DNA from: Cafeteria roenbergensis
Taxonomy: Eukaryota > Sar > Bigyra > Bicosoecida > Cafeteriaceae
Assembly (NCBI GenBank): GCA_008330645.1
Contig: VLTN01000003.1
Location: 186,001 to 250,000, forward strand
Reading direction: 5' to 3'
Length of the DNA: 64,000 bases
The position numbers were made by a program, and so were the translations under genes. Each line of letters begins with the position of its first letter. The first letter of the stretch is position 1. The notes under the pieces were generated by a model. It was not told where the DNA came from. It worked only from the letters and a program-made list of their open reading frames with translations, and ran no database searches. Below, piece by piece: positions 6,301-44,421 of this stretch.

Positions 6301-9195
6301 TACCGCGCGCGTAACGATGCCAGTGGGCAGCGCCGCCAGCATTCGGGCCGCGTCCGCGGGCGCCGCTGCCGGGAGCTGGGCGAGGGCGCGCAGGAAGCCG
6401 GAGCGGAGCTGCGGCACCGTGGGCACGTGCCAGGGCTGGTACCCAGTGAGCAGGAGGGAGGACCGACCGAGGGCCTCGGCGGCGCTGAGCGACTCCGCGA
6501 TGCGCGCGTCTGCGGCGGCCTGGCAGAGCCGCTCCACGACGGTGTGGCTGACGTGGCGGCCCCTGCGAGCGAGGAGGGTGAGGGCGTTCCTCGCTGCCGC
6601 GGGGTCGTGCTCGTCCAGCGCCTGCATCACCAGGGCATCGTGCACGGAGGTGAAGGCTGGGCCGGCCAGAGAGGGCACCGCCAGCGTCGGGAGGAGCGCC
6701 TTGAGAGCCTCGGCAGAGCTCATGCTGCGCACCACGCACAGCGCGGCGCGCGCTGCCGCGTCGCGCACGTCGTCGAGCGCGGGCTGGAGAGGCGGCAGAG
6801 CCGGCCGGGCGCGCCCCTCGGGCGACTGCGAGGACGCGGGCACGGGAGGCGCTGCAAAGGCCCAGGGCTCCGCGGACTCCAGCTCGGCCTCGGCGAAGTC
6901 CTGGCCGCCGAAGACCCGCGCCTGGGGGATGCCTTCAGCGTTGGTGGGCGCGGAGTCGCCAGACTCCTCCTCCGCGCTGCGCACGGCACCAGCGAGCCCG
7001 GCCCCGGGGGCGGGGCCTGCCTCCGTGCGCTGCCGGGCTGCGGCGTCTTGGTTCGAGGGGGGAGCATCGGGCGGCGTGCTGCCTGCCGGAGCTGCTGAGG
7101 TGGCCGGCTGCGCCCTGGCGCCCGCGGCCATGATTGCCCTGGCAGAGAGGCGGGCCGTCTCCAGGATGGACGCGGCAGTGGCCACGTCGTTGGCGTCGTG
7201 GGCCGCCCTGGCCGCCTGGAGCAGCACGCGCGCGGGAACGCGCCCCGGCCCCCACGACTGCCAAGACGCGGCGGCCGCGGAGCGGGCTCTGTCGGCCAGC
7301 TCCTCCCCTACACCGGCCCTGAGCGCCGTGGTGTGCAGCGCGTCCCAGGGCGAGAGCGCCCACGCGCGGGCTCCCGCAGCATCCTCACCGGCGCGCGCCC
7401 GCTTGGCAAGCGAGGCCAGCGAGCCGGCCGACAGGGGCGCCGCCGCCCCCCCGCGCTGCTGCCACTCCCCCAGCAGCTCCGCCAGAGCGGCGTCAGTGAC
7501 GCCGGCTGCGGCTGTGTCCGCCCGGCGCCGGGCGAGCTCCCGCTGGCGCTTTCGCGCGCGCTTCGTCGCCCCGCTGGGAGCTGCAGCCCGGTCTGCCGCC
7601 GCTGCCGCTGCCGCGGGTCTGGCAATGAGTCCAGTCGGCAGAAGGGCGTCGAGCGCGGCCTGGGAGAGAGCCGCGTCGGCAGGAACGCCCGGCTCGGGAG
7701 CTGCGCTGCCCGCGTCAAGCGGCAGGCCGGCCGCTCCGACGTCGGTCCCGAGGCTTGCCATAGCGGCTTCCACCGACTCCCCGGCCTCCTGGGCCTCGGG
7801 CCTCGCGTCCAGCACGCCCACAGGCCGCAGGGGAGCAGGGGTCGCCGCGGCCCAGAGCAGCACCTCCGCGGCCATCGCCGGCGCGTTGGCCGCCGCCTCG
7901 GCCGGGAGCACGGCCCCGAGGGCGGCGGCCAGGGACTCGGCTGCCGCGTGTACCTGCCCCCGCGCCGCCTCTCGCGCTCCTGCGCGGCCCTTGTGCGCCT
8001 CAGAGGCGGCCAGTGCCGCCGCCTCGGCCTCTGCGAGGAGCACGCCCCGGAGCATTGCCAAGGCGGCCTCCGCGCCGTGGAAGTGAACGGATTCGAAGGA
8101 GACGAAGCTGCCAGCCTGCCAGCGGCCGAGAGCCACGGCAGCCCGGGCCAGGAGGCGCCACCCGAGCCCGGCGGCGTCTTCGCACCAGGCGGGGGGCGGG
8201 ACGGCGGCGGTGGCGGCTTGCGCGGCGGCCGCCCGGGCACGGTGGTGAAGCGTGGCCCCAGCACCGGCAAGCAGCGGTGCGCCCCCGCACACGGAGCCGT
8301 GGGCGGCACCGGCCTCCACCAGTGCGGCCTCCAGCCGGCCCAGCTGCTGGGCGGGCAGCCCGGTGGTCGCAGGCAGCAGGGCGGCGCGCCGGGCCACTGC
8401 CTCGGCTACCAGGGCACCGTGAGCGCCTTCCATGCGGTCCTTGGCCCTCGCCGCCACCGCAAGAGCCTTGAGCGCGGCGCCCGGAGACGCGCCTGCGGCG
8501 GCGGCCGCGAGCGAGGCGAGGCGGGCCGCAGCCTCGGCCTTGCCTGACCGGCAAAGCAGCTCGACATCGGAGGCCAGCGCGCGGCCGGCCTCGTCGCGCA
8601 GCCCCTCTGGCGTCGCGTGCTCCCCGGCAGCGGCCAGCAGCTCCGCCAGCGGCACAGCGATGTCCTTCCCCGACGCCCCCGGCTCAGCAATCGCCACGGA
8701 AGCGCCGCGGGAAAGCGCGCTCGCGACGGCAAGCAGCGGGGGCGAAGACCACCCCATGCCGCGCACAGCCTCCCCGTGGGCAGCGCCCAGCTCGGCGGCG
8801 TCCTGCGCTGTCGCTGCCAGCTCTGCACGCCGCTTCTCGTCGCACCCGGGCTCAGCAGCCTCCACGAGAGCCTCAACCGCTGTCGTCACAAGCATGACCT
8901 GCGCCTTGACATTGTGCTCCCGAGCCACAAGCGCCGAGCGCGCCTGGCCGAGCGGGGTCAGGCGGTGTGCGCTCGGGCGGGCAACTGCGTCAGCGTGGTG
9001 CACAGTCTCCGCCTCGCGCCCGCTCCCCGCGCCAGAGGCCGCCTCCTCGCTGATTGCGCCGGCGGGGCGAGACAAGCGGCGCCTCGGCAAGCGCGAAAGG
9101 GCGGCGCACGCTGCCGCCGGAAACACTCGCTTCGTCGTCGCCAACCTTGCGACTCCGGCCGCTGCAGGTGTGCCGCTCCATCGGCCGCGAAGCAT
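3382..9195 (-). CDS. Large mitochondrially targeted helical (PPR/SMR-like) protein, 1937 aa
   Basis: Single exon. The frame is open up to 9618, but the first ATG giving a convincing N-terminus is at 9195: it begins MLRGRWSG and continues with Arg/Ala/Ser and no acidic residues for about 45 residues, a typical mitochondrial presequence. Most of the protein is Ala-rich helix. A stretch coded near 4850-4600 (DAERLVKVCCRADQPRRAEQ, then ALARAWAGAGALAKAERRC) looks like tandem PPR/TPR-type helix pairs. Near the C-terminus (coded about 4050-3870) LGVVDVTPLRDESAG and PDTLVVPAAASSLVH could be a worn SMR domain. PPR-SMR proteins bind organelle RNA, which would suit the targeting, but the motifs are degenerate and this is inference. 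The C-terminus is charged coiled coil. There are long disordered inserts. It could also be an unrelated lineage-specific mitochondrial protein. Confidence 0.6.
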   Translation of the reverse strand: MLRGRWSGTPAAAGVARLATTKRVFPAAACAALSRLPRRRLSRPAGAISEEAASGAGSGREAETVHHADAVARPSAHRLTPLGQARSALVAREHNVKAQVMLVTTAVEALVEAAEPGCDEKRRAELAATAQDAAELGAAHGEAVRGMGWSSPPLLAVASALSRGASVAIAEPGASGKDIAVPLAELLAAAGEHATPEGLRDEAGRALASDVELLCRSGKAEAAARLASLAAAAAGASPGAALKALAVAARAKDRMEGAHGALVAEAVARRAALLPATTGLPAQQLGRLEAALVEAGAAHGSVCGGAPLLAGAGATLHHRARAAAAQAATAAVPPPAWCEDAAGLGWRLLARAAVALGRWQAGSFVSFESVHFHGAEAALAMLRGVLLAEAEAAALAASEAHKGRAGAREAARGQVHAAAESLAAALGAVLPAEAAANAPAMAAEVLLWAAATPAPLRPVGVLDARPEAQEAGESVEAAMASLGTDVGAAGLPLDAGSAAPEPGVPADAALSQAALDALLPTGLIARPAAAAAAADRAAAPSGATKRARKRQRELARRRADTAAAGVTDAALAELLGEWQQRGGAAAPLSAGSLASLAKRARAGEDAAGARAWALSPWDALHTTALRAGVGEELADRARSAAAASWQSWGPGRVPARVLLQAARAAHDANDVATAASILETARLSARAIMAAGARAQPATSAAPAGSTPPDAPPSNQDAAARQRTEAGPAPGAGLAGAVRSAEEESGDSAPTNAEGIPQARVFGGQDFAEAELESAEPWAFAAPPVPASSQSPEGRARPALPPLQPALDDVRDAAARAALCVVRSMSSAEALKALLPTLAVPSLAGPAFTSVHDALVMQALDEHDPAAARNALTLLARRGRHVSHTVVERLCQAAADARIAESLSAAEALGRSSLLLTGYQPWHVPTVPQLRSGFLRALAQLPAAAPADAARMLAALPTGIVTRAVRGRFLPDLDEHDPDSHLAGGADSLADGAAAGASLMPSAGEAHPASERPSASRHHGRAGHQLPPQLQPRDAASSESELEVDMAADRPPSRQSALVRATSTPARAGAGSEALATRDDRSVAAVPITSLEQAQAIYATALADAAAPAAKRHVAGELASSLGLSPPSTVADDAYGSGVAAGKDALTAEAADALNRSRQRYASQLAKLQRARGLVGPGGDAQGAGQGAAAAADMPPDALDGSLDALADAALGAHTPSGPAEVVPPPMPRDPPSSLMVVRSSAAPPGSADAATAAAAGQPTVMSASRWALLAGVASRIVAEPRIPLTAWRAHSGLVAAWEAARAAVAEEEERAMAEERREDAGAAAGRADALDGAWAASLLEDESEAEGGRAAAGGFDLGAEGGDRSAGHVASDAASSRGNRSGLSGRSVAGSGSGSGRAGGWLAVLDSPPPMAPLLSADEGSRLRRALQARADGAGEGGSLREAFELSDRLQAAGFEVGPEDAERLVKVCCRADQPRRAEQTAQWAEGVLGGAALTWRTHAALARAWAGAGALAKAERRCAAMLQALPEHVAAAGRESGAAVVQAIDESRMVAGARAEARAKALAERADGERREREAFAQARLGAGSRMKQIALGAGAGAAAAGDEATAAAGGVRTPPGHVAWSTGVGAIRAGAASALHGLGLPDSSAGAAAGVGDDDDDAGPELVVSRRGATWRETAALHEAEETVALVVEAAASTGQPRRATAVVDMAARYGVLCRVLSGAPLGVVDVTPLRDESAGCVLFAAMDRLRARAREGKPVPDTLVVPAAASSLVHVKAVLEGLSPALRCTVRHPPVQHGAGGVALPCVPRVEVSAEDLTAWLTAPRDELDAFSAAPARGRSRGGGAGGPAPKADPWEAEADDWNEAGDAAEAARQREEFQSWHQRWALRRAEARLAEEEQALATSSSSTAQLRRQLRWRKVEEPSAKQSVREDDSDRA

Positions 9196-14886: not shown

Positions 14887-17800
14887 CTAGCGCAGCCCCA
14901 GCGAGGCCGCAAGCACGTCCACCTGCCTCTGCAGGGCGCCGCCCGTCTCCTCCGCGTACCGCCGCACTTCCTCCTGCAGCGCCTCCGCGAGCTCCCCCCC
15001 CTCGCCAGCCTCCCTCGCGATTGCCGCCAGCTGCTCGCCCAGCTGCTCTGCGACGGCGTCCAGCAGGCGGGCCTGCTGCTCCTTGTGGGCGGCCACCACA
15101 TCGGCCATCTCAGCTCGACGTACAGCGTCGCCGGGCGTCTCCCAGCCATCGGGCCGCTGCCACTGCGTCTCGCCGGTCCCCTCGTTGTGCCAGTAGGACC
15201 GCTGCGTTCGCTTGTCCACGTGGTGCGTCCACTGGCTCCTAGCGGCCTCCTGTGCCTGCCGGGCCAGCAGCAGCTCCGCGGCCTCTGTTTTCTCCTCGGG
15301 AGACAGGCCGAACAGCGCGCTCGCCTCCTCCTCCGCACCGGCCCGTCCTGCGGGCCCGTCGCGCCCAGAGGCCCCCGCCGCCTCGTCCGCCGCGCGCGAG
15401 GCGTGTGCCTGGGAGAGCTGGTGGGCTGCTGCCTCGGCCTCCTGCTCCGCCGCCGCGGCCGCCGCCTGCAGCCTGCGCACGTCAGAAAGGAAGGAACCCC
15501 TCGCAGCGCGAACCTCCCCAACCAACCGCTGCACCTGCCCCTCGAGCAGGGCGAGCCGCGACGACGGCGTCTGAGCCTGCGACGCGCCTCGCGCCGGGGA
15601 GGCCGATTTGTCGGGCACTCCAACCAGCGGCAAGGCCCGCATGAGCTCGAAGTGGCGCGTGAGGGCGGCAGCGCGCTTCTGGACTTCGTCCTCCAGCTCA
15701 GACAGCCGCTTGGAGCGGCGGTCCGCGGCCTCCTTGGCAGCGTCGGCGGCCGCCAGCCCGGCCCGGAGAGCGCGGGAGGCGCCCCCTTCGTCCGCATCGC
15801 CGGCCTCTCTCGCCGCCGCAGAGGCGGCCACAATGACGCGGCGGCGCGCCGCCCGCGCCAGGGTCGCCTCCTCCTCCGCCCGCGCCGCCGCCTCCCGCCA
15901 CCTGGCGGCCTCCTCGTGCGCCGCGGCAGCCTCGGCACGGAGCTCTGCCACTTCGCTGGCGGTGGCGGACCCCGGCTCCGGCTGCGCGGTCCCCGCCGCC
16001 GCCCGCCCCACCAAGCCCCTCGTGCGGACGAGCTCCCGCCGCAGGCGCGCCGCCTCGGCCTTGAACCGGCGGGCGAGGGAGGCGTCGTCCAGCGTCTCGT
16101 TGCGCTCCGCGTGCACCTCCACCCTCTTGGCTCTGTCCGCAAAGTGAAGCGTGGACATTGTCTCCTCCAGGTGCGCGCTGGCGGGGGAGATTGTGACGAC
16201 GAACAGCGTCTTACAGTTGCCGCCCAGGCTGTCCTGAAGCAGCCGCGTGAGCTTGGAGTCGCGGTACGGGACGTGCGTGCGCGAGCGGCTGGCCAGGGCG
16301 CGGACGCAGTTTCCAAGGCAGGACAGCGACTGGTTAATGGCTGTCAGCTCCGTGAGACGCCGGCCGCTCAGCGTGTCGAGCGCGTGGGGTCGAATCTTTT
16401 CGGAACCAGCCTGCGGATTTCAGCAGAGCGTCGGATCGAGCGCAGGAGGCGAGGAGGGGTGGGGGGGAAGGCACAGACGGGGGAAGGACAGGACAGGACA
16501 GGACAGAGAGACGGAGGGTGGGGGGGGGGGGGAAGGCCGCGCGGCAATGGCGGCTGGGAATGGTCAGCAGAGCGGGGGTAGAACAGCCCTGGCAGAACAG
16601 GCCTCACCAAGTCCACGAGCGACACCTTGGACCGAGAGACGACCGTCTCCGCGTCGCCCAGCGTGGAGCCAGGCACAAGCCCGCTCCCGCCCTCGTCGTC
16701 CTCGTCGTCACTGCCGGCGCCGCCGCCGCTCCCACGACCGGTCTTGGACGACCCTCTCGAGGGCGACCCGTGCCGCATCGGCGAGCCCCCCGGGGAGCGC
16801 CGGTGCGTTCGCTCGATGCCCACCTGCCAGATCGTGTGCGACCTCGAGCTGTGCTCGTTCATGTCCGTTGAGGCCAGCACGCGGTTTCGTGCGCCCTCCC
16901 AGAGCAGCGCCAGGACCTCAGCCTCGTTGGTCACGGGTACCGCGACCGCGTCAGGCACGCAGACCCCGCGCAGCGGGTCAGCCACAATGTCGAGACTGGC
17001 GGGCCCGACCCGCTGGCCCGCCCCAGCGGCTCCCCTTGGGCCTGGCGCCGGCATCAGTGGCGTCTCGTCCGGGCAGAGCAGGTCGTACACCTTTTCGTTG
17101 TAGATTTCCAGGTACGTGACAGTGACCTTCACCCCTTCCGGGAGCCGCCTCGAGAAGGGGGCAGCGCCTCCCTGGCCCTGGCCGGCCGCGCCCCCCGCAA
17201 GCGAGGTCCTCCTGCTCTGCCTGCCGCCCCCGTGGAAGCCCCCCGGCGAGGAGTGCTGGGAGTGCGTGGCCCCGTCGCGCCCGGCCGATCCTCCGGCGGC
17301 GCCGGCCCCCGCCGCCCCGGCTGCGCCTTGCATGAGGCCGCTCGACCGCTCGCCGATGCCCCCCGGCCCGAAGACGCCGCTTCCACCCGCCCCTGAGGCC
17401 TGCAGGCGGCAGAACAGAAAGGCCATCGCCCTCGGGATGAGGCCCCAGTCGGGGTGGTAGTCGCCGCCGTAAGCCATGAGGCGGTCCACCACGCCCTCGT
17501 ACGCCGGGGTCCCCGGCTGCAGCGCGCCCGAAGACACCGCGTCGGCCATCCCGGCGCCAGGCGCGCCGCTCTCCCTGGCTGCAGCGGCTGCCAGCGCGGC
17601 GGACGAATCCGTCTCGGCAAGGCGCCACATGTCGACGCCCAGCATTGTGTGCGTCTTTCCAGTTCCCGTTTGGCCGTACTGCGCGCGCCATGCGCGACGA
17701 CAACAAATACGACACAAGGTGTACGGCGGGGGGATGGGGTGTTGGTGCGCACGAGAAGCAGGGCCGGGGCGCGCACAGTGTGCATGCAGCGACGGAGCCC

Positions 17801-18180
17801 GACGGCGCGCTGCTCGCGCCCGCCCCAGCTGCCCGGCAGGCGCCCCCCACGCTCACAGCGAACACGGTCGTGTTGAAACCAGAGAGGGCTTGCTCCAGCT
17901 GAGGCTGGACCACTCGGAACATGGCCTCCTGCCCGCCCTCGGGCGGAACCACGTGATCAAGTCTGAACGTTGCCGGCGCTCCCGCAAGCGAGGGCGACAC
18001 CAGAACGTCCCCGCTCCCGCGGATCTGCACGGCGCACTCATCCCCGTCCAGTTTCTCGGACTGCAGCAGCGGGCGCACTCGCGCCACCACCTGGATGGTC
18101 TCCGCCCCTGGGGAGCGGACTGCGGTCCCCGGAGTTGCAGGTGCCACCCGCTTGCCGGGAGTCCGAGGAGCTGCGGACAT
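14887..18180 (-). CDS. N-terminal motor kinesin with a C-terminal WW domain, 972 aa
   Basis: Exons 18180-17857, 17678-16608 and 16410-14887; both introns are phase 0 with GTGAG donors. The first ~35 residues precede the motor (ETIQVVARVRPLL). The first intron falls exactly before the P-loop YGQTGTGKTHTM. The second lies inside switch II (SLVDL|AGSEK). Switch I reads NEHSSRSHT, and the motor closes with YRDSKLTRLLQDSLGGN and TLHFADRAKRVEV. A ~170-residue Gly/Ser/Ala-rich insertion splits the motor between the P-loop and TYLEIYNEKVYDLL. A second insert follows switch I. After the motor come long Ala/Glu-rich coiled coils, then a WW domain (SQWTHHVDKR...YWHNEGTGETQWQRP, about residue 880) that should bind proline-rich ligands, and a further coiled coil. 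The motor lies at the N-terminus, so it is expected to move to plus ends. The subfamily is not assigned. Confidence 0.93.
16411..16607 (-). repeat. Intron with GGACA repeats and G13 run
   Basis: The second kinesin intron holds four to five copies of GGACA (16486-16506) and a G-run at about 16519-16531. Simple-sequence DNA; likely unstable in length. Confidence 0.7.
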
Positions 18181-18384
18181 GGCAGCAGCCGCGATGCCTG
18201 CTTGAGCGATCCCGGTGCCCAGCGGCCCCAGCGACTCGCTCGTGCCGGGTCCTGTGCGGCGGGGGCAGCCCGGAACAGCCTCAACGGGCGACGGGCCGCA
18301 CAGCTGGGCAGAGCCCGCTCCGCGCGCACGGCGCCAGCCGCCGCTCGGAACGGCGCGTGCGAGGCCACCGCGTACGGCTACACC
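18181..18384. promoter_or_regulatory. Bidirectional promoter between kinesin and delta-isomerase
   Basis: 204 bp between divergent ATGs. No TATA element is seen. Function inferred from position. Confidence 0.35.
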
Positions 18385-19260
18385 ATGCTCGCGGCGCGAC
18401 AGGTGATCCGGCTTGCCTCGGCCCGGACCGGGGCCCGCGCTCTGGCGACGGCCTCGCTGCCCAGCTCGCTGCACCTGTCGGCTTCCACGACCGACGGCGT
18501 GGCCATCCTGGAGATGAAGGACGCGCCGGTGAACGCCCTCAGCTCGGCGTTCATGGAGTCGTTGTGCATCGCCGCGGACCAGCTGGCTCGCGATGAGGCT
18601 GTCCGCGCTGTGGTGCTCACCTCCAACGTGGGCCGGCCCGTCTTTTCCGCCGGCCTCAACCTGGCCGAGCTCATCGTGGATGAGGGCGGAGACCCCGCCA
18701 AGCCCGACAAGCGATTGGTCTCGTTCATGTCCCACATCGGTGCTGTGACTCGCGCCTGGCTGTCCTTCCCCAAGCCAATGGTTGCCTCCATCAACGGCGC
18801 CGCCCCTGCGGGCGGCTGCATGCTCGCGCTGACGGCGGACTACCGCGTCATGCAGGCGGGGCAGAAGCACAAGATTGGACTGAACGAGACGCAGGTCGGT
18901 GTGAGCGCCCCCTGGTGGCTGTCGACCATGCTGCAGGACACTGTGGGCGTGCGCCGCGGCGAGCGCATGCTGCAGCTGGGAGAGCTGGTGGGCCCCGAGG
19001 AGGCCTTGGACATGGGCCTCGTGGACGAAGTGATGCCCACCGAGGCGGAGACGCTGGCGCGCGCCGTGGAGATGGCGGCGAAGTTCGCCGCGGTGCCCGA
19101 CCACTCGCGGCGCGACACGAAGCAAGCTCTTCGGGGCCCTTTCGTGACCCAGATGGAAGATCGCGCGGCGCAGGACGCTACCGCGTTCGCAACGCACGTT
19201 ATGGACCCCAACGTGCAGAAGCAGCTCCGCAGCATTGTCGAGGGGCTTGGGAAGCGCTGA
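18385..19260 (+). CDS. ECI1: Mitochondrial enoyl-CoA delta-isomerase 1 (dodecenoyl-CoA isomerase), 291 aa
   Basis: Single exon. It moves cis-3 or trans-3 double bonds to trans-2 so that unsaturated fatty acids can enter beta-oxidation. The start at 18385 gives MLAARQVIRLASARTGARAL, a clear mitochondrial presequence. The crotonase fold follows: APVNALSSAFMESL, the oxyanion-hole strand VFSAGLNLAEL, NGAAPAGGCMLALTADYR, and the ECI1 signature GLNETQVGVSAPWW, whose Glu is the catalytic base in the mammalian enzyme. The C-terminal helices (RRDTKQALRG, FVTQMEDR) are complete. The length matches the family. It shares a short bidirectional promoter with the kinesin gene. Confidence is high for the subfamily because the NETQ segment separates ECI1 from hydratases. 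Confidence 0.95.
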   Translation: MLAARQVIRLASARTGARALATASLPSSLHLSASTTDGVAILEMKDAPVNALSSAFMESLCIAADQLARDEAVRAVVLTSNVGRPVFSAGLNLAELIVDEGGDPAKPDKRLVSFMSHIGAVTRAWLSFPKPMVASINGAAPAGGCMLALTADYRVMQAGQKHKIGLNETQVGVSAPWWLSTMLQDTVGVRRGERMLQLGELVGPEEALDMGLVDEVMPTEAETLARAVEMAAKFAAVPDHSRRDTKQALRGPFVTQMEDRAAQDATAFATHVMDPNVQKQLRSIVEGLGKR

Positions 19261-19704
19261 GGTGCTCGCGAGCTGGCCGCTGCCCGAGGCGTTTTGGTCT
19301 GTTGCGTTTGCCGGCTTGTGCGTAAGCAGCAGTTGAGGATTGGGCCCGCAGGCAAACTCGGGCCCAGCTGACGCATGCTGTGGCTGCGGCCGACAGTCGC
19401 TGCTGTCTCGGAGCCGCCAAGAGGCTGCGCGCAATCCCCGAACTTTTGCTGCCCTTCGCGCCCGGGCCTCGACCGCACGCATTCACAGCAACCATGCCCT
19501 TGGCCCCGTCCCGTGGCACCTGCGAGCCTGGGCCGCGAGGCAAACACTTGCACGCGCGAGACATGGTTCGGTCGGGAGGCAGTTGCCCTGCGCCATCGAC
19601 TCGAGGGGGCGGAAACCCTGCGCAGACAGAGCAGGCCCCCTCGTCAGCTGGCGCAACACTGCCAAGCGTGCCGCGCGCCTCCCCAGGTCACGAACGCTGG
19701 CACC
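19261..19704. other. 444-bp intergenic stretch
   Basis: Lies between ECI1 and the RING gene, both on the plus strand. Frames crossing it give only Arg/Pro/Cys-rich shadow peptides. No gene recognised; presumably a 3' UTR plus promoter. Confidence 0.4.
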
Positions 19705-26824: not shown

Positions 26825-27622
26825 TCACGCGATTGCGTTGAGCTCGACGGCTCCGTGGTCCAAGTGAAGCGTCGTCCACTCGTCCTGACGCGTGGCGCCC
26901 ATCTTGTCGTAGCACGAGAGGGCCATCTCGTTCCAGTTGAGGGCTACCCAAACCATGCGGGTGCATCTGGCAGCAGCTGCTGCGGCGGCTCCGACACGGA
27001 TGAGCTCAGTCCCGATTCCGGCGCGCCTCGCAGAAGGCACCACGAACAGGTCCTCCAAGTAAATGACGCGCCCCCGCCAGCTTGAGTACGCAGTCGTGTA
27101 CATCGCGAAGGCTACGTCAACTTGCCCCGCTGGGGCGCCATCCGTGAGGGAGGCTCCTCCTTCTGCCAACGCCTCAGCGGCTTCGGCCTCCGGAAGAGAC
27201 GCTATCAAAACGACCACAGCGGGGCTGCTCCCCGCTGAGTCGCGAAGGAAGGCATCAGCATCCATGGCAACATCATCTGGCGCCTTCTCGTAGACGGCAA
27301 GGCTTCGCACGAACCACTCCACCGCGAGAAAGTCAGCACGAGACTCGGCAACCCGAACACTCGAGCCCCCAGACAGGCCGAAAGGCGCTTCAGAGCTCTT
27401 GTTGCCTCGCAGGTTGCTCCGAAAGGCTGCACCCCACTCCAGGGCATCGCGATACCATGCTGCTCGGGTCATGTCGATTCCGAGGGCGCTTGGGTCTGCC
27501 AACGCGCTGCTCCAGTCCGCAGTCCGTTCCGCGCCCAGCGAGGTGGCTGCAAGCGCCGCACTGCTCGCGCGCAACGATGCGCGCTCGTCATCGCCCAATG
27601 TGGTCGGCACCGCGCCAGCCAT
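26825..27622 (-). CDS. GNAT N-acetyltransferase, SSAT-like, 265 aa
   Basis: Single exon. I use ATG 27622 (MAGAVPTTLGDDERASL); the frame is open further upstream but has no ATG. The N-terminal ~110 residues are helical and not recognised. The GNAT fold begins SSVRVAESRADFLAVEWFV. Motif A reads YLEDLFVVPSARRAGIGTEL, with the acetyl-CoA-binding R/Q-x-x-G-x-G/A loop, and motif B ALNWNEMALSCYDKMGA. The YLEDLFV strand and closing DEWTTLHLD are most like spermidine/spermine N1-acetyltransferase and related amino-group acetyltransferases, which transfer acetyl from acetyl-CoA. The substrate is not determined. It lies 202 bp downstream of the repeat-protein stop site region and 233 bp upstream of the HD gene, all on the minus strand but presumably separate transcripts. 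Confidence 0.85.
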   Translation of the reverse strand: MAGAVPTTLGDDERASLRASSAALAATSLGAERTADWSSALADPSALGIDMTRAAWYRDALEWGAAFRSNLRGNKSSEAPFGLSGGSSVRVAESRADFLAVEWFVRSLAVYEKAPDDVAMDADAFLRDSAGSSPAVVVLIASLPEAEAAEALAEGGASLTDGAPAGQVDVAFAMYTTAYSSWRGRVIYLEDLFVVPSARRAGIGTELIRVGAAAAAAARCTRMVWVALNWNEMALSCYDKMGATRQDEWTTLHLDHGAVELNAIA

Positions 27623-27738
27623 GACGCCCGTGTGTGAGCGCACGCTGGCGAGCCGGAGCAAGCGAGGAGACACCTCCCCGCAGGGCACGGCACATTTGGC
27701 CTCAGGCAGAGCAAAATCAAACCCAAGCAGAGCCACAC

Positions 27739-30700
27739 TCAAGCCAACTCCAAGTCGTCCGGGTGGCCGATCCAGCCATCGTGCGAACTGAACGCAACGC
27801 GCGCGTCACCATCCGCGTCAAAAGACGAGAGCACTCCAACATCGCCCCGTGACACGGAACCCCACCCGTAACGCGGCTCGGATACAGAGGCCTTCACTCT
27901 GACGCGCTGGCCGACAGCCAGTCCCGAGCTTGGGGTCCCCTGAGCAGGGGAGCCCGTCGTTGCCGAGGTTGGGGTCGAGGCCGTGCCCGCAGTCACTGCA
28001 AGCTCCATCTCCGACGGGTCCGCCAGCCAGTTGCTGTTCTTCCCAGGGAAGTCCACGCGCATCCGGGAGTCGGACTCCACGGACTTCACAGTGCCCACGT
28101 CGCCCGCCGACACCGACCCCCACCCGTACTTGGGCGACGACACCGACGGCTTCACGCGCACGCGGGCACCGACGCTGAACGCACCAGCGCCACCCGAGAC
28201 CAGCTCCATCTCTGGCGGGAAGCCAGTCCAGCTGGAGGCCTTGCCAGGGAAGTTCACCTGCATATCCCCATCCGAGTCGAAGCCCACAATCGTGCCCACG
28301 TCCCCCGCCGACACGGGACCCCACCCGTACTTGGGCGACGACACCGACGGCTTCACGCGCACGCGGGCACCGACGCTGAACGCACCGGAGCCGGCCGGCG
28401 CGAGCTCCATCTCCGACGGGTCCGCCAGCCAGTTGCTGTTCTTCCCAGGGAAGTCCACGCGCATCCGGGAGTCGGACTCAACGGACTTCACAGTGCCCAC
28501 GTCGCCCGCCGACACCGACCCCCACCCGTACTTGGGCGACGACACCGACGGCTTCACGCGCACGCGGGCACCGACGCTGAACGCACCAGCGCCACCCGAG
28601 ACCAGCTCCATCTCTGGCGGGAAGCCAGTCCAGCTGGAGGCCTTGCCAGGGAAGTTCACCTGCATATCCCCATCCGAGTCGAAGCCCACAATCGTGCCCA
28701 CGTCCCCCGCCGACACGGGACCCCACCCGTACTTGGGCGACGACACCGACGGCTTCACGCGCACGCGGGCACCGACGCTGAACGCACCGGAGCCGGCCGG
28801 CGCGAGCTCCATCTCCGACGGGTCCGCCAGCCAGTTGCTGTTCTTCCCAGGGAAGTCCACGCGCATCCGGGAGTCGGACTCAACGGACTTCACAGTGCCC
28901 ACGTCGCCCGCCGACACCGACCCCCACCCGTACTTGGGCGACGACACCGACGGCTTCACGCGCACGCGGGCACCGACGCTGAACGCACCGGAGCCGGCCG
29001 GCGCGAGCTCCATCTCCGACGGGTCCGCCAGCCAGTTGCTGTTCTTCCCAGGGAAGTCCACGCGCATCCGGGAGTCGGACTCCACGGACTTCACAGTGCC
29101 CACGTCGCCCGCCGACACCGACCCCCACCCGTACTTGGGCGACGACACGGACGGCTTCACGCGCACGCGGGCACCGACGCTGAACGCACCGGAGCCGGCC
29201 GGCGCGAGCTCCATCTCCGACGGGTCCGCCAGCCAGTTGCTGTTCTTCCCAGGGAAGTCCACGCGCATCCGGGAGTCGGACTCCACGGACTTCACAGTGC
29301 CCACGTCGCCCGCCGACACCGACCCCCACCCGTACTTGGGCGACGACACCGACGGCTTCACGCGCACGCGGGCACCGACGCTGAACGCACCGGAGCCGGC
29401 CGGCGCGAGCTCCATCTCCGACGGGTCCGCCAGCCAGTTGCTGTTCTTCCCAGGGAAGTCCACGCGCATCCGGGAGTCGGACTCCACGGACTTCACCGTG
29501 CCCACGTCGCCCGCCGACACCGACCCCCACCCGTACTTTGGGCGACGACACGGACGGCTTCACGCGCACGCGGGCACCGACGCTGAACGCACCGGAGCCG
29601 GCCGGCGCGAGCTCCATCTCCGACGGGTCCGCCAGCCAGTTGCTGTTCTTCCCAGGGAAGTCCACGCGCATCCGGGAGTCGGACTCCACGGACTTCACAG
29701 TGCCCACGTCGCCCGCCGACACCGACCCCCACCCGTACTTGGGCGACGACACGGACGGCTTCACGCGCACGCGGGCACCGACGCTGAACGCACCGGAGCC
29801 GGCCGGCGCGAGCTCCATCTCCGACGGGTCCGCCAGCCAGTTGCTGTTCTTCCCAGGGAAGTCCACGCGCATCCGGGAGTCGGACTCCACGGACTTCACA
29901 GTGCCCACGTCGCCCGCCGACACCGACCCCCACCCGTACTTGGGCGACGACACCGACGGCTTCACGCGCACGCGGGCACCGACGCTGAACGCACCAGCGC
30001 CACCCGAGACCAGCTCCATCTCTGGCGGGAAGCCAGTCCAGCTGGAGGCCTTGCCAGGGAAGTTCACCTGCATATCCCCATCCGAGTCGAAGCCCACAAT
30101 CGTGCCCACGTCCCCCGCCGACACGGGACCCCACCCGTACTTGGGCGACGACACCGACGGCTTCACGCGCACGCGGGCACCGACGCTGAACGCACCGGAG
30201 CCGGCCGGCGCGAGCTCCATCTCCGACGGGTCCGCCAGCCAGTTGCTGTTCTTCCCAGGGAAGTCCACGCGCATCCGGGAGTCGGACTCCACGGACTTCA
30301 CAGTGCCCACGTCGCCCGCCGACACCGACCCCCACCCGTACTTGGGCGACGACACGGACGGCTTCACGCGCACGCGGGCACCGACGCTGAACGCACCAGC
30401 GCCACCCGAGACCAGCTCCATCTCGGACTGGACACCCGTCCAGCTCGAGTGCTTGCCAGGGAAGTTCACCACAATGTCCCCATCCGAGTCCAACCTGACA
30501 ATCGTGCCCACGTCCTCCGCCGACACGGGACCCCACCCGTACTTGGGCGACGACACCGACGGCTTCACGCGCACGCGGGCACCGACGCTGAACGCTCCGG
30601 AGCCGGCCGGCGCGAGCTCCATCTCCGACGGGTCCGCCAGCCAGTTGCTGTTCTTCCCAGGGAAGTCCACGCGCATCCGGGAGTCGGACTCCACGGACTT

Positions 30701-33700
30701 CACAGTGCCCACGTCGCCCGCCGACACCGACCCCCACCCGTACTTGGGCGACGACACCGACGGCTTCACGCGCACGCGGGCACCGACGCTGAACGCACCG
30801 GAGCCGGCCGGCGCGAGCTCCATCTCCGACGGGTCCGCCAGCCAGTTGCTGTTCTTCCCAGGGAAGTCCACGCGCATCCGGGAGTCGGACTCAACGGACT
30901 TCACAGTGCCCACGTCGCCCGCCGACACCGACCCCCACCCGTACTTGGGCGACGACACCGACGGCTTCACGCGCACGCGGGCACCGACGCTGAACGCACC
31001 AGCGCCACCCGAGACCAGCTCCATCTCTGGCGGGAAGCCAGTCCAGCTGGAGGCCTTGCCAGGGAAGTTCACCTGCATATCCCCATCCGAGTCGAAGCCC
31101 ACAATCGTGCCCACGTCCCCCGCCGACACGGGACCCCACCCGTACTTGGGCGACGACACCGACGGCTTCACGCGCACGCGGGCACCGACGCTGAACGCAC
31201 CGGAGCCGGCCGGCGCGAGCTCCATCTCCGACGGGTCCGCCAGCCAGTTGCTGTTCTTCCCAGGGAAGTCCACGCGCATCCGGGAGTCGGACTCAACGGA
31301 CTTCACAGTGCCCACGTCGCCCGCCGACACCGACCCCCACCCGTACTTGGGCGACGACACCGACGGCTTCACGCGCACGCGGGCACCGACGCTGAACGCA
31401 CCGGAGCCGGCCGGCGCGAGCTCCATCTCCGACGGGTCCGCCAGCCAGTTGCTGTTCTTCCCAGGGAAGTCCACGCGCATCCGGGAGTCGGACTCAACGG
31501 ACTTCACAGTGCCCACGTCGCCCGCCGACACCGACCCCCACCCGTACTTGGGCGACGACACCGACGGCTTCACGCGCACGCGGGCACCGACGCTGAACGC
31601 ACCGGAGCCGGCCGGCGCGAGCTCCATCTCCGACGGGTCCGCCAGCCAGTTGCTGTTCTTCCCAGGGAAGTCCACGCGCATCCGGGAGTCGGACTCAACG
31701 GACTTCACAGTGCCCACGTCGCCCGCCGACACCGACCCCCACCCGTACTTGGGCGACGACACCGACGGCTTCACGCGCACGCGGGCACCGACACTGAACG
31801 CACCGGAGCCGGCCGGCGCCAGCTCCATCTCGGACTGGACACCCGTCCAGCTCGAGTGCTTGCCAGGGAAGTTCACCACAATGTCCCCATCCGAGTCCAA
31901 CCTGACAATCGTGCCCACGTCCTCCGCCGACACGGGACCCCACCCGTACTTGGGCGACGACACGGACGGCTTCACGCGCACGCGGGCGCCGACGGCGAAC
32001 GCACAAGCGCCGCCCGAAACCAGCTCCATCTCTGGCGGGAAGCCAGTCCATCGGGACGATTTCCCGGGGAAGTGAACGAGAACATCCCCATCCGAGTCGA
32101 AGCCGGTCACGGTGCCCACGTCGCCCGCCGACACGGGACCCCACCCGTACTTGGGCGACGACACGGACGGCTTCACGCGCACACTGTCGCCAGGACTGAA
32201 CGCACCGGAGCCGGCCGGCGCGAGCTCCATCTCCGACGGGTCCGCCAGCCAGTTGCTGTTCTTCCCAGGGAAGTCCACGCGCATCCGGGAGTCGGACTCC
32301 ACGGACTTCACAGTGCCCACGTCGCCCGCCGACACCGACCCCCACCCGTACTTGGGCGACGACACCGACGGCTTCACGCGCACGCGGGCACCGACGCTGA
32401 ACGCACCGGAGCCGGCCGGCGCGAGCTCCATCTCCGACGGGTCCGCCAGCCAGTTGCTGTTCTTCCCAGGGAAGTCCACGCGCATCCGGGAGTCGGACTC
32501 AACGGACTTCACAGTGCCCACGTCGCCCGCCGACACCGACCCCCACCCGTACTTGGGCGACGACACCGACGGCTTCACGCGCACGCGGGCACCGACGCTG
32601 AACGCACCGGAGCCGGCCGGCGCGAGCTCCATCTCCGACGGGTCCGCCAGCCAGTTGCTGTTCTTCCCAGGGAAGTCCACGCGCATCCGGGAGTCGGACT
32701 CAACGGACTTCACAGTGCCCCACGTCGCCCGCCGACACCGACCCCCACCCGTACTTGGGCGACGACACCGACGGCTTCACGCGCACGCGGCACCGACGCT
32801 GAACGCACCGGAGCCGGCCGGCGCGAGCTCCATCTCCGACGGGTCCGCCAGCCAGTTGCTGTTCTTCCCAGGGAAGTCCACGCGCATCCGGGAGTCGGAC
32901 TCCACGGACTTCACAGTGCCCACGTCGCCCGCCGACACCGACCCCCACCCGTACTTGGGCGACGACACGGACGGCTTCACGCGCACGCGGGCACCGACGC
33001 TGAACGCACCGGAGCCGGCCGGCGCGAGCTCCATCTCCGACGGGTCCGCCAGCCAGTTGCTGTTCTTCCCAGGGAAGTCCACGCGCATCCGGGAGTCGGA
33101 CTCAACGGACTTCACAGTGCCCACGTCGCCCGCCGACACCGACCCCCACCCGTACTTGGGCGACGACACCGACGGCTTCACGCGCACGCGGGCACCGACG
33201 CTGAACGCACCGGAGCCGGCCGGCGCGAGCTCCATCTCCGACGGGTCCGCCAGCCAGTTGCTGTTCTTCCCAGGGAAGTCCACGCGCATCCGGGAGTCGG
33301 ACTCAACGGACTTCACAGTGCCCACGTCCCCCGCCGACACGGGACCCCACCCGTACTTGGGCGACGACACGGACGGCTTCACGCGCACTCGGTCGCCAGC
33401 GCTGAACCTGGCGGCACTGGCGATCTGACAGGGGCTGGAATGCATCCGGATTCGGATGTCGTCGGCCCTGGCACCTGGAGAGCGGCACACGGCTGCAACA
33501 AACGGTCCATCGGACTTCTTGATGTCCTTCGCCACCACAACCATGCTCGCGTCGGCACCCACTGCTGCAGACAGCGTGCCTCGCTCGAGGTCCAGCTGGA
33601 AGCTCAGCGTGTCTCCAGGGTGGACCGCCGACGCAGACCCGCAGTTGGTGGCGAGGCCCTTCCCAAGACAGCTCCCATCCGAGTGCTTGATCCAAGTTGT

Positions 33701-34786
33701 GGGGGCGGCAGTCTTGAATGAAAGCGCCTCCTGCGTGGCCCCCACCGCGGCGATGCCGGAGTAGGAGCCCTCGCCGTCCTTCAAGTCTTCGATGAGCTTG
33801 ACCGTCCACTTCCAGCAACCGTCTGCCATTACGGTGGAGAAGCCGCAGATGGGAGAGCCGGGGCCCTTGAGCGACACCGCCTGGCCGGAGTTGTCCGGGA
33901 AAGCGCCCTCACTGGTGAGGGCCGGAATCGCAGAGGCGAGCCAATGGCCTCCGGCGCTGGAGGCAGCGGCCCCTGCTCCGCCTAGCACGCCGGTGCGCAA
34001 GTTCTCGAGCTTGAGCTTGGCCTGCCAGAAGAACCGGACAGCGGGGAAAAGCTTGCACGCAGGCAGGCCCTTCACGATGACGCCAAAGTCCTTGTCGTTG
34101 ATCTTGGCGCTGAGGGTGCGGGCAGATGCATCGAAGCTGAATCGCACGCGGTCCCCAGGGTGAATGGGCTGGAGCGGGCTTTGGACTACGGTGCCCATGA
34201 GAGAGACCACAACCCCAGTCATGGAGCGGACGGATGCGAAGTGCTCGGCCTCCGCCCCGGCGCTGCAAACGTCCGCACTTGCGATCCCAATGCAGGTGCT
34301 CTCATCGCCGTATTCATCTTCCTCGGACAGCACTTCCCACGCGCCGCTCGTGCCATCGCCAACGCTCTTGGAGAAGAGGACGAGGCGGTCCTCGGTCCCG
34401 GTGCACTCGACAACCCGGCCCTCGCCAGTCACTTCCAGAAGGCCCGAAGGCAGCCCGCTGCCGATCGATGTCGTCCACTCTCCGCCTGCGGCAGGGCCGG
34501 GGCGAAGGCACGGCGCTCACATCTGCTCGAGACCGAACGTGCGCAACGCTCAACAAGCGCCGGGTCCAGCCAAGCGCGAGCCCGGCCACTGCTTGAACAC
34601 AAACGTGTCTCAGCTTCCACGATGGAGCAGGCAGCCGGCACCCAGCGCGAGCCGAGGCGTGTGGCAGTGCCGCGCTTCGGCGAGACCGCGAGAAAGGATC
34701 TAGGGATCCGTCCCACAGGGCTTGCGAGCTGGAGGAGGGGCGCTCCTCGACTTACCTGCCACCTCAGAAAGACCTGCTGCTGCCAT
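27739..34786 (-). CDS. Giant protein: two SPRY-like domains plus 28 KEG/HERC2-type repeats, about 2258 aa
   Basis: Exon 1 34786-34756 (MAAAGLSEVAG, donor CAG|GTAAGT) joins exon 2 34485-27739 in phase 1. The N-terminal ~360 residues hold two SPRY-like units: the first runs from GEWTTSIGSGLPSGLLEV to RVRFSFDASARTLSAKINDK, the second from GCWKWTVKLIEDLKDGEGSY to DTLSFQLDLERGTLSAAV. From about residue 365 come 27 units of 67 aa (core RVRVKPSVSSPKYGWG-V, then DVGTV and MRVDFPGKNSNW) plus a diverged last unit after an Ala/Thr/Ser/Gly linker. The core matches the C-terminal repeats of plant KEG and the related HERC2-type repeats, which bind partner proteins in ubiquitin ligases. No RING, kinase or ankyrin is present here. 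One-base homopolymer differences at about 29537, 32716 and 32790 shift the frame; the net effect of allowing for them is one continuous frame, so they may be assembly errors. Confidence 0.82.
27976..33403 (-). repeat. 27 tandem 201-bp coding repeats
   Basis: Perfect 201-bp spacing of the landmark CTGAACGCA from 28176 to 33403. About 20 units are near-identical (type A). Four are type B (ISGGKPVQ on the antisense reading; near 28183, 28584, 29992, 30997), two type C (near 30395 and 31820) and one type D (near 32000-32110). Type A copies share a silent TCAACGG/TCCACGG marker in blocks, showing recent unequal crossover or conversion. The period is a multiple of three, so copy number can change without breaking the frame. 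Confidence 0.97.
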
Positions 34787-42897: not shown

Positions 42898-44421
42898 TCA
42901 TTCGCGCAGGCACATCGCGCCCCCCGCGATATACTCGTAGCGAGTCCAAAGCACACGGTCTTCTTCAAAGTGCGCCCTGGCGGTTGCACCAAGGCCCACA
43001 CCGTCTGCGCGGCGAACGGGGACCTCCAAGCAAGCGCACTGCTCCATCGCCTCCGGCTCAAAGCTGAGCTCGGTGTCGAACGGCGCCCACAGGTCGAGCA
43101 CGGCGAACTCGTCTTCGCGCAGCGTCACCCACGGAACTGGCGTTGAGGGCCGTACTGCATCTCCTGCAGCGTATCGCGAGTCCTGCGGAATCCAGGACAT
43201 CAAGCCCGCGGCCCTGGATGCAGCGCCGCCGCCCCCAGCCATGCAGGAGCACCCGGCTCCGATGCAGGCGTGCGCCGGTGCGCCTGGTCTAGTTAATGGC
43301 ATGGACGGCAGCCCCTCGGCTCCTACGCCCGCCCTGGTGACAGCTGCTGGCGACAAGCCAAGGTCGGCGAGCAAGTCGGGGTCATCAGCTAGGGACGGAT
43401 CTCCAGCGCGGTCGGGGCCCGCTCCAGCAACCAGGGGCCCAGAGAGAGAGTCGTCACGCTGCCCCTCACTGCCAGCCCCGCCTGCTATCGGCGAGGAGTC
43501 GCCCGGTGAGGAGGGCAGCGCCGTGCCATTGAGCGCCACCACCGCCGGGCCAGCCAGAGGCAAGCATGGGACTCGCCTCCCGCTCTTCAGCCGCATACAC
43601 ACTCCTGCCGCCGATACCAGGAGAGGCGCGAGGCATGTCGAGCTGGCCAGCAATCGTCTCGACTGGGACGTGGCCCCGCCCGCAGCCGGTTGGCCCGACA
43701 ATGCCGCTGCGCTAGCAGCGACTTCTGCTCCCGCGGCGATGACATTCTGCGCAATCACGCGCAGCCGAAGCCACCTGCACTCGGGGACTGCTGCCTGGTC
43801 ACGCCGGCCAGCGGCATGCGTCCCGGTCGGAGACGACCCCGCCGGCGCGCTGCGCAGCCTCGTGTCCGGACTGTGGGCCACGGTCACCCATACAGACATG
43901 GCGACTGCGGTCTGGTCACAGTCCGAGGAGCTGCCCGGCGGCAGGAAGCGGACCACGCTGCCTTGCGCAAACACGTGGTGTGACCGCCCCGACATGTCTC
44001 CGCGAGGCGCCCTGCGTTCCAAGTGCCAGTCACGGTAGGTTGTGCGCCAGTTCCTCCGGTCTGACGAGCTTGCGCCCGTGAGCTGCCGGTGTCTCGTGCG
44101 ACGGCTCTTGACGCCAACATTGAAGCGCCGGAGCACGAGCGCAGCCCACAGCCGCCGGTCCTGCGCTGCGACCCGCCATGCGCGGCACACCTGGCTTGCG
44201 ACAGCAGCGTCTCGGGCGGATCCCATTTCTAGGACCCGCCCCACGAGTTCGGGCTGCAGCAAGTTCCAGCCAGTTGAAACTGCGGGGCCATCGGCACCCG
44301 AGCTTGTCGCCCTTCTTCCCGTCCCTCTGCGCATGCTCTCAGCAGTGTGCGCCGTGCCGGGCACAGTGCCAATGCTGCTAACACATTCGCGGCCTGCTTG
44401 CTCGCGACCTGAGCCGTCCAT
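42898..44421 (-). CDS. F-box protein, 507 aa
   Basis: Single exon from ATG 44421. The F-box lies at about residues 50-100: WNLLQPELVGRVLEMG, then VASQVCRAWRVAAQDRRLW and RRFNVG, with the conserved Leu-Pro position as Gln-Pro. A basic helical WRTTYRDWHLERR segment follows, as often seen after F-boxes. The middle is Ala/Ser/Pro-rich and likely disordered, with a Cys-rich HACIGAGCSCMAG patch. The C-terminal ~80 residues (WVTLREDEFAVLDLWAPFDT, HFEEDRVLWTRYEYI) look folded but I do not recognise them; they may be the substrate-binding part. F-box proteins bind SKP1 in SCF ubiquitin ligases. The call rests on one domain. Confidence 0.72.
   Translation of the reverse strand: MDGSGREQAGRECVSSIGTVPGTAHTAESMRRGTGRRATSSGADGPAVSTGWNLLQPELVGRVLEMGSARDAAVASQVCRAWRVAAQDRRLWAALVLRRFNVGVKSRRTRHRQLTGASSSDRRNWRTTYRDWHLERRAPRGDMSGRSHHVFAQGSVVRFLPPGSSSDCDQTAVAMSVWVTVAHSPDTRLRSAPAGSSPTGTHAAGRRDQAAVPECRWLRLRVIAQNVIAAGAEVAASAAALSGQPAAGGATSQSRRLLASSTCLAPLLVSAAGVCMRLKSGRRVPCLPLAGPAVVALNGTALPSSPGDSSPIAGGAGSEGQRDDSLSGPLVAGAGPDRAGDPSLADDPDLLADLGLSPAAVTRAGVGAEGLPSMPLTRPGAPAHACIGAGCSCMAGGGGAASRAAGLMSWIPQDSRYAAGDAVRPSTPVPWVTLREDEFAVLDLWAPFDTELSFEPEAMEQCACLEVPVRRADGVGLGATARAHFEEDRVLWTRYEYIAGGAMCLRE

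What the first reader, a model, noticed from the sequence alone, without database searches (positions are those of the whole stretch)
27739..34786. Two SPRY-like domains fused to a 28-unit KEG/HERC2-type repeat array
The 67-aa unit matches the C-terminal repeats of plant KEG by its core VRVKPSVSSPKYGWG and DVGTV-DFPGK pattern. KEG has RING, kinase and ankyrin parts with about 12 repeats; this protein has none of these but 28 repeats behind twin SPRY-like domains. That makes it a very large, repetitive binding surface, possibly a scaffold for a ubiquitin ligase. I know of no such architecture.
Basis: partly seen in the sequence, partly recalled or inferred. Interest (0 to 1): 0.78.

Follow-up and report, generated by a model that had tools for sequence, protein, structure and literature searches.

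The report
Giant 28-repeat SH3 adaptor protein
A protist gene, probably from the marine flagellate Cafeteria, encodes one long protein that carries 28 copies of a small binding module known from ubiquitin-ligase enzymes but no detected enzyme part, and nearly identical copies of the module sit in another gene that otherwise looks unrelated.

Summary
The observation largely holds. On the minus strand (34786 to 27739) lie one small exon, a GT-AG intron and a large exon encoding a SPRY domain, a SPRY-like domain, 27 tandem 67-aa units and a 28th divergent unit. The units belong to Pfam SH3_15 (PF18346), the SH3-like repeat of MIB1 and KEG; the nearest solved relative is HERC2. SPRY1 passes Pfam's cut-off. 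SPRY2 does not, and rests on profile comparison; its fold could not be tested. No RING, kinase, ankyrin, HECT or RCC1 domain was found. The assembly has three single-base frame breaks inside the array, probably homopolymer errors, unproven.

New here: assembly totals fit Cafeteria roenbergensis (burkhardae) strain BVI. The other SH3_15 hits in this genome lie in one further gene, on two near-identical contigs: C2 domain, Ala-rich stretch, six units. One of those units differs from a window unit at 1 of 201 bases, yet no DNA similarity was found outside the arrays. A MIB_HERC2x2-RING frame elsewhere shows no SH3_15 hit.

Best reading: a catalysis-free, multivalent peptide-binding adaptor. The ubiquitin link is inferred by homology only. 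New variant of a known kind.

The parts
34756..34786 (-). Exon 1 (31 bases, from the ATG); proposed, no RNA evidence
   Evidence: ATG at 34786, GT at 34755; phase fits exon 2
34486..34755 (-). Proposed GT-AG intron, 270 bases
   Evidence: sequence signals and phase only
27739..34485 (-). Exon 2: SPRY, SPRY-like, 28 SH3_15 units, stop; frame interrupted three times in this assembly
33989..34396 (-). SPRY domain 1 region
   Evidence: PF00622 E=2.5e-9, above cut-off; own-genome relatives C35 at 37% and C65 at 29% identity
33434..33883 (-). SPRY-like domain 2 region (below Pfam cut-off)
   Evidence: PF00622 E=0.09; HERC1 SPRY 4qt6 E=0.023; hhalign 94.4% to a SPRY1-containing profile, control 0.1%
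27979..33406 (-). Tandem array of 27 SH3_15 units of 67 aa (201 nt); 25 intact units plus unit 4 and unit 20 with frame breaks
32603..32803 (-). Unit 4, holding two single-base length changes that cancel each other
29386..29587 (-). Unit 20, holding one single-base length change in a homopolymer run
27742..27921 (-). Unit 28, divergent C-terminal SH3_15 unit
   Evidence: PF18346 E=2.4e-6, 28.1 bits, cut-off 24, in a 98-aa piece; 55% identity to a B-type unit

Best explanation
The gene encodes a catalysis-free adaptor of roughly 2,250 residues. The N-terminal SPRY pair holds one partner. The 28 SH3-like barrels, joined by short Gly/Ser/Ala-rich links like beads on a string, bind a short peptide motif of another partner many times over, so that weak single contacts add up to strong, clustered binding. 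In the relatives MIB1, KEG and HERC2 such modules sit in ubiquitin ligases and help to recruit substrates; here the recruiting module stands alone and would gather its ligand for another protein. Shown: domain identities (SPRY2 only as likely), unit number, a repeated strand pattern per unit in a moderate-confidence model, no catalytic domain detected, only synonymous change among the internal A-type units, near-identical units in a second gene. Inferred: peptide binding, multivalency, cytosolic location (no signal or membrane prediction was run), partners, cellular role.
For: SH3_15 on all three pieces far above cut-off and no E3, kinase or ankyrin family listed. Five-unit model: five short strands in each unit, pLDDT under 50 at each link (62-70, 129-138, 196-204, 263-268, 330-335; also at 150-154 inside a unit). 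Foldseek: MIB1 MZM-REP 4xi6 first (2.2e-9), HERC2 9l8y (2.0e-6, 33% identity), HERC2 with NCOA4 9l93 (3.7e-6), MIB1 REP 4tse (3.0e-5). MIB1's SH3-like repeats are described as substrate recognition domains, and KEG carries seven SH3_15 (passage of PMC11701565). A KEG fragment with only the HERC2-like repeats pulled down MAPKKK18 (passage of PMC11020294). Coding constraint: 4 of 4 variable sites among 16 intact internal A units are synonymous, plus one more in broken unit 20, against 25.7% synonymous by chance.
Against: No ligand, expression or interaction data. Model confidence is moderate (pLDDT 61.1, pTM 0.30) and the superpositions are poor as a whole (4xi6 TM-score 0.25 by query, rmsd 19.0; 9l8y 0.21 by query and 0.40 by target, rmsd 7.7); DSIF, AGDP3, UBE2O and, further down, Tudor structures are in the same list, so the fold does not fix the ligand. 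A KEG fragment without the repeats but with the ankyrin part also bound MAPKKK18. As assembled, the frame is broken three times. The synonymous-only pattern rests on few sites that are not independent if units convert one another (31.8% synonymous if only transitions are counted); edge units 1 and 27 and the B/C types differ at the protein level.
Confidence: 0.5

Rival explanations
1. Split ligase: the array is a substrate receptor that works in trans with a separate RING protein of the same genome (contig C2, two MIB_HERC2 domains and a RING, no SH3_15 hit), so that parts fused in MIB1 are on two chains here.
For: C2 513-aa frame: MIB_HERC2 in two stretches (6.4e-14) and a zf-C3HC4_3 RING (8.1e-13), no SH3_15 in its list (E up to 0.1); genome-wide SH3_15 hits at E up to 0.001 lie only on C3, C78 and C113. 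MIB1 carries both kinds of domain.
Against: Nothing links the two proteins but domain names. The C2 gene was read as one open frame only; further exons were not examined. No interaction was predicted.
Confidence: 0.15
2. Structural or membrane tether: the array is a long spacer or coat element, and the sister gene with a C2 domain does the same at membranes.
For: The sister frame on C78 joins a C2 domain (1.5e-6), an Ala-rich stretch and six units; weakly predicted links.
Against: 24 of 67 unit positions are invariant across six diverged units, which may be a binding face (or only the core of the fold); no actin or tubulin-binding family was listed for the window gene.
Confidence: 0.15
3. Decoy: the array binds the degron of a substrate and shields it from a ligase.
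For: Substrate-recruiting kind of module without a detected catalytic domain.
Against: No ligase with SH3_15 repeats was detected in this assembly to compete with, although other modules could compete.
Confidence: 0.1
4. Decaying or partly artefactual locus: the array is a recent, possibly misassembled amplification and the gene is a pseudogene.
For: Three frame breaks; 11 distinct DNA units among 25 intact ones, so array length may be mis-assembled; the six-unit arrays on C78 and C113 have no frame break.
Against: The breaks are single-base homopolymer changes; contigs C78 and C113 differ from each other by five changes of that kind in one 6.1-kb alignment, though none of the five lies in their arrays. 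Intact units downstream of the last break keep their protein sequence. The published assembly that fits is PacBio RS II with Racon polishing (passages of PMC6972860).
Confidence: 0.1

Closest known systems
HERC2 (SH3-like segment in PDB 9l8y / 9l93)
   Same: Best solved relative of the unit: E = 1.6e-21 with a unit profile, aligned over profile positions 3-61; also found by fold search. 9l93 is titled as a complex of NCOA4 with HERC2 (title only).
   Different: In the solved chain one unit matches strongly (70.4 bits) and another weakly (7.4 bits); HERC2's HECT and RCC1 parts (recalled) have no counterpart here.
Arabidopsis KEG
   Same: Tandem SH3_15 repeats, seven by ECOD/Pfam, elsewhere called 12 HERC2-like repeats.
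   Different: KEG has RING, kinase and ankyrin parts; none was listed here, and the KEG layout in those passages has no SPRY.
Mind bomb 1 (MIB1) REP region
   Same: The region from which SH3_15 was defined; top Foldseek hit of the five-unit model.
   Different: Two SH3_15 plus two MIB_HERC2 domains in a RING ligase; here 28 SH3_15 and no MIB_HERC2 or RING listed.
Zebrafish ftr97 (FinTRIM 97)
   Same: Multiple SH3_15 repeats, six.
   Different: Has a pair of RING domains; not compared by sequence here.
HERC1 SPRY domain (PDB 4qt6)
   Same: Weak best match of both SPRY regions: E = 0.023 (on SPRY2) and 0.042 (SPRY1 alone).
   Different: Giant HECT ligase (recalled); the matches are not significant alone.
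Own-genome C2-coil-SH3_15x6 gene (contigs C78/C113)
   Same: Units almost identical in DNA; the nearest pair differs at 1 of 201 bases.
   Different: No DNA similarity found outside the arrays; C2 domain instead of SPRY.

Membership tests
SH3_15 repeat (PF18346) | Score above Pfam's curated cut-off | tested here: met
   117, 517.7 and 292.7 bits for the three pieces, cut-off 24; 40 of 40 listed genome matches over the cut-off, best 43.6 bits; C-terminal 98-aa piece 28.1 bits
SH3_15 repeat (PF18346) | SH3-like fold close to MIB1 REP / HERC2 | tested here: met
   repeated five-strand pattern; MIB1 and HERC2 among the 24 hits at E up to 0.001. Moderate confidence only: pLDDT 61.1, low whole-chain TM-scores (0.15-0.25 by query for the MIB1 and HERC2 rows)
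SH3_15 repeat (PF18346) | Peptide or substrate binding | not testable with these tools
   needs a binding assay
SPRY domain (PF00622), first copy | Score above Pfam's cut-off | tested here: met
   37.7 bits, cut-off 26.3
SPRY domain (PF00622), second copy | Score above Pfam's cut-off | tested here: not met
   13.3 bits, cut-off 26.3; called SPRY-like only
SPRY domain (PF00622), second copy | Profile similarity to SPRY relatives | tested here: met
   hhalign 94.4%, E 9.1e-8 over 112 columns, to four own-genome sequences including SPRY1 (one of the four, from C22, is itself below Pfam's cut-off); one control protein 0.1%
SPRY domain (PF00622), both copies | SPRY fold by structure prediction | tested here: inconclusive
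   single-sequence model, pLDDT 34.9
KEG-type E3 ligase | RING, kinase and ankyrin parts | tested here: not met
   none among the families listed for the three pieces (E up to 1)
MIB-type E3 ligase | MIB_HERC2 domains and RING | tested here: not met
   neither listed; genome hits of MIB_HERC2 lie on C22 and C2
HERC-type E3 ligase | HECT and RCC1 domains (RCC1 recalled) | tested here: not met
   neither listed
Ubiquitin-ligase subunit | Association with a ligase | not testable with these tools
   no interaction data

The most novel reading that the evidence does not exclude
In this flagellate the substrate-recruiting SH3_15 module has been cut loose from ligases. It travels as a DNA cassette between unrelated genes, is kept nearly identical by ongoing exchange, and makes high-copy multivalent receptors (SPRY-based and C2-based) that serve separate MIB_HERC2-RING or HECT ligases in trans: a split, expandable ligase system.
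Probability: 0.15. Interest if true: 0.65.

Novelty: new variant of a known kind. Interest (0 to 1): 0.4.

Why it matters
SH3_15 repeats were published as parts of ubiquitin ligases. Here they appear in high number with no ligase part found, and nearly identical units occur in another gene that otherwise shares nothing detectable. If the readings hold, it is a natural test case for how repeat number tunes avidity, and for exchange of coding repeats between unrelated genes. The ubiquitin connection itself remains a guess.

Tried and rejected
Structure prediction of the two SPRY regions (single sequence) gave pLDDT 34.9; not used, and no fold search was run on it. Searches for relatives elsewhere: the 550-aa SPRY plus units query found none in IMG/VR (12 pattern matches, 0 relatives); the 1057-aa array piece found none in GTDB contigs (9 matches, 0 relatives); the unit profile found none in GTDB contigs (127 matches, 0 relatives) and 1 of 36 in IMG/VR; a five-unit piece found none in the plasmids; the 550-aa query hit 1 of 50,697 phage records, weakly. 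Orthologues in other protists could not be sought: no eukaryote collection is held. NCBIfam gave only hits far below cut-off. Other Pfam names on the array: SH3_13 (77 and 58.3 bits, cut-off 41), DUF6484 (107 and 65, cut-off 27.6), Alg17C_C (41.8 and 28.2, cut-off 27) and DUF4537 (28.9, cut-off 27) do pass their whole-protein cut-offs on a long piece; repeated near-identical units add up in such scores and most of these matches cover only part of a unit, so I did not take them as membership, but they were not examined further. KEG, MIB and HERC membership rejected (no catalytic parts listed). Photosynthetic host: no chlorophyll-binding family hit. 18S search failed and a short pattern found nothing. 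No paper with HERC2, SPRY and protist together in the library (0 papers); a second broad search 0 papers. A paper on the HERC2-NCOA4 structure was not identified among the 10 of 165 listed.
Full report
What is there. The gene lies on the minus strand. An ATG at 34786 opens a 31-base exon, followed by a 270-base GT-AG intron and a large exon from 34485 that ends with a stop at 27739. The intron is proposed from signals and phase; no RNA was available. Exon 2 encodes a SPRY domain (34396-33989), a SPRY-like domain (33883-33434), 27 units of 67 aa in 201-base register apart from the frame breaks (33406-27979), and a 28th, divergent unit (27921-27742). If the breaks are ignored the product is about 2,250 residues (my arithmetic).

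Frame. In this assembly the array is not one open frame. Unit 4 holds two single-base length changes that cancel each other, and unit 20 holds one more, all in short homopolymer runs. The three open pieces were searched separately and no mended protein was built. Reasons to suspect assembly error: (a) contigs C78 and C113, near-identical copies of another locus (99.3% over 6,170 aligned bases, 97.5% over a further 3,273), differ from each other by five single-base homopolymer changes in the first of these stretches, besides a 21-base change and a few gaps in an Ala-rich region; (b) units downstream of the last break keep their protein sequence; (c) the published assembly that matches is a PacBio RS II Canu assembly polished with Racon (passages read, PMC6972860). 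Against: differences between C78 and C113 could be real allelic differences, none of the five lies in their arrays, whether they fall in coding sequence was not checked, and both six-unit arrays are open. So this is not proof.

Source. G000 has 36,303,456 bases in 167 contigs, the window is about 65-77% GC per 2 kb, and no chlorophyll-binding protein was found. The table in PMC6972860 gives 170 contigs, 36,327,047 bp and 70.1% GC for Cafeteria roenbergensis strain BVI. I infer that the window is from that strain; that it is now called C. burkhardae is recalled (the name appears in the abstract of PMC8547959, seen in a listing). This is a match of totals, not of sequence.

Repeat identity. Pfam SH3_15 matches the three pieces with 117, 517.7 and 292.7 bits (cut-off 24) in 3, 16 and 9 stretches. 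Over the whole genome the same model gives 40 matches at E up to 0.001: 28 on C3 (this gene), 6 on C78 and 6 on C113 (the tool calls its counts lower bounds). By sequence the nearest solved structure is HERC2 (9l8y, 6.1e-12 with three units; 1.6e-21 with a six-row unit profile), then MIB1 (0.095 with three units; 8.2e-6 and 2.5e-5 with the profile). The AlphaFold model of five units, made with 14 overlapping five-unit rows of the window itself, has mean pLDDT 61.1 and pTM 0.30; five short strands recur in every unit, and the links fall below 50, as does one stretch inside a unit. Foldseek puts MIB1 MZM-REP first (2.2e-9) and has HERC2 and MIB1 REP among the 24 hits at or below 0.001; the rest of those 24 are mostly DSIF, with AGDP3, UBE2O and one other model; Tudor structures follow at higher E. 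Whole-chain superposition is poor (4xi6: TM 0.25 by query, rmsd 19.0; 9l8y: 0.40 by target, rmsd 7.7), so family and fold agree while the arrangement of neighbouring units is not predicted with confidence.

Unit types. Of the 28 units, 20 are A type (18 intact, two with breaks), four B, two C, one a B-like variant (unit 7) and one the terminal unit (types named by me). Among 25 intact array units there are 11 distinct DNA sequences and 7 distinct protein sequences. Among 16 intact internal A units there are four variable sites, all synonymous, and broken unit 20 adds a fifth; 25.7% of possible single changes would be synonymous, giving 0.004 (four) or 0.001 (five) by chance, somewhat more if only transitions count (31.8%). 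Against this: edge units 1 and 27 carry protein-level differences, types A, B and C differ mainly in the second half of the unit, and the sites are not independent if units convert one another.

SPRY regions. SPRY1 is above Pfam's cut-off (E 2.5e-9) and has relatives in the same genome on C35 (37% identity) and C65 (29%). SPRY2 is below it (E 0.09); a weak HERC1 SPRY match (0.023), hhalign to a four-sequence profile containing SPRY1 (94.4%; one unrelated control 0.1%; one of the four rows, from C22, is itself below Pfam's cut-off) and a 33-residue BLASTP match between the two regions (6e-5 for that single comparison) support it. The structure model was too poor to decide. I call it SPRY-like.

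The sister gene. On C78 and C113 an open frame of 668 or 639 aa has six SH3_15 units behind an Ala-rich stretch; the C78 frame was scanned and has a C2 domain (1.5e-6), and the C113 frame reads the same in that part by eye and differs in the Ala-rich part. Whether these are two alleles or two gene copies is not known. The closest C78 unit differs from a window unit by one base of 201; the other five differ by 2, 3, 5, 6 and (last unit, 183 bases) 16 bases from their nearest. With both arrays masked, blastn (E up to 0.001) finds no similarity between that 10-kb locus and the window. So near-identical coding repeats sit in genes that otherwise share nothing detectable. Recent copying or gene conversion between them is the simplest reading; direction and timing are unknown.

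Other ligase-like genes of the genome. MIB_HERC2 (PF06701) passes its cut-off on C22 and C2. C22 is a 5,283-aa frame with MIB_HERC2 and HECT and a SPRY-like stretch that is below Pfam's cut-off (0.038). C2 holds a 513-aa frame with two MIB_HERC2 and a C-terminal RING. No SH3_15 was listed in the pieces of either that I scanned. This suggests, but does not show, that modules fused in MIB1 lie on different chains here.

How it may work. Best reading (0.5): a multivalent, catalysis-free adaptor, SPRY pair for one partner, SH3 array for a short motif of another. It rests on the described role of MIB1's SH3-like repeats in substrate recognition, on the pull-down of MAPKKK18 by a KEG fragment with only the repeats (a fragment with the ankyrin part and without the repeats bound too), and on the existence of a HERC2-NCOA4 crystal structure (title only). 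Binding, partners, location and any tie to ubiquitin are inferred. Rivals: split ligase (0.15), structural or membrane tether (0.15), decoy (0.1), pseudogene or assembly artefact (0.1).

Novelty. The module is known and its presence in ligases is published. I found no paper on this architecture in the searches (listings, with passages of three of the papers read), which cover open-licence papers only, and no eukaryotic protein collection could be searched, so absence of orthologues is not shown.

On rereading the calls I changed the verdict on the observation from confirmed to partly confirmed (frame breaks, SPRY2 below cut-off) and added results against my reading (superposition scores, other Pfam names above cut-off, the KEG ankyrin fragment, no indels inside the sister arrays).

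Noticed in passing
L009 (own genome C78:121000-130999) 4656-6659 minus; L010 (C113) 5037-6953 minus: Ala-rich stretch and six SH3_15 units almost identical in DNA to the window array, with a C2 domain in the scanned C78 frame.
   Followed up: yes
L024 (C2:780001-790000) 3996-5534 minus: Open frame with two MIB_HERC2 domains and a RING but no SH3_15 hit: a MIB-like ligase without the REP-type repeats.
   Followed up: partly
own genome C22:253343-269191 minus: A 5,283-aa open frame with MIB_HERC2, a weak SPRY-like stretch and HECT.
   Followed up: partly
own genome C65 (frame of 6,739 aa) and C35:290804-294295: Very long open frame with a SPRY domain, and a 1,164-aa frame with a SPRY domain that is the closest own-genome relative of SPRY1 found.
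   Followed up: partly
L026 2614-3483 plus (IMGVR_UViG_3300013315_000010): A 289-aa protein on a viral contig, beside helicase-like and DNA-polymerase-like frames (my reading of the translations), has one SH3_15 match above cut-off (E 1.2e-6) and by eye a second similar unit; four PHROGs of unknown function match both it and a five-unit piece of the window array.
   Followed up: partly
L025 1093-1809 plus (Pseudomonas phage phiK7A1, gene phiK7A1_152): Hypothetical protein with a sub-threshold SH3_15 match (E 0.0068; tblastn 6e-5).
   Followed up: partly
window 26825-27742 minus: GNAT acetyltransferase frame (4.7e-11) directly downstream on the same strand.
   Followed up: no
window 42901-44421 minus and 55396-59211 minus: An F-box-like frame (8.8e-6) and a RING-H2 plus PHD frame (5e-9, 4e-6), among 10 long frames of the window scanned (one search lists 186 of at least 150 aa); no link to the repeat gene was tested.
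   Followed up: no
window 16981-19482 minus: Part of a kinesin motor domain, below cut-off (4.5e-5).
   Followed up: no
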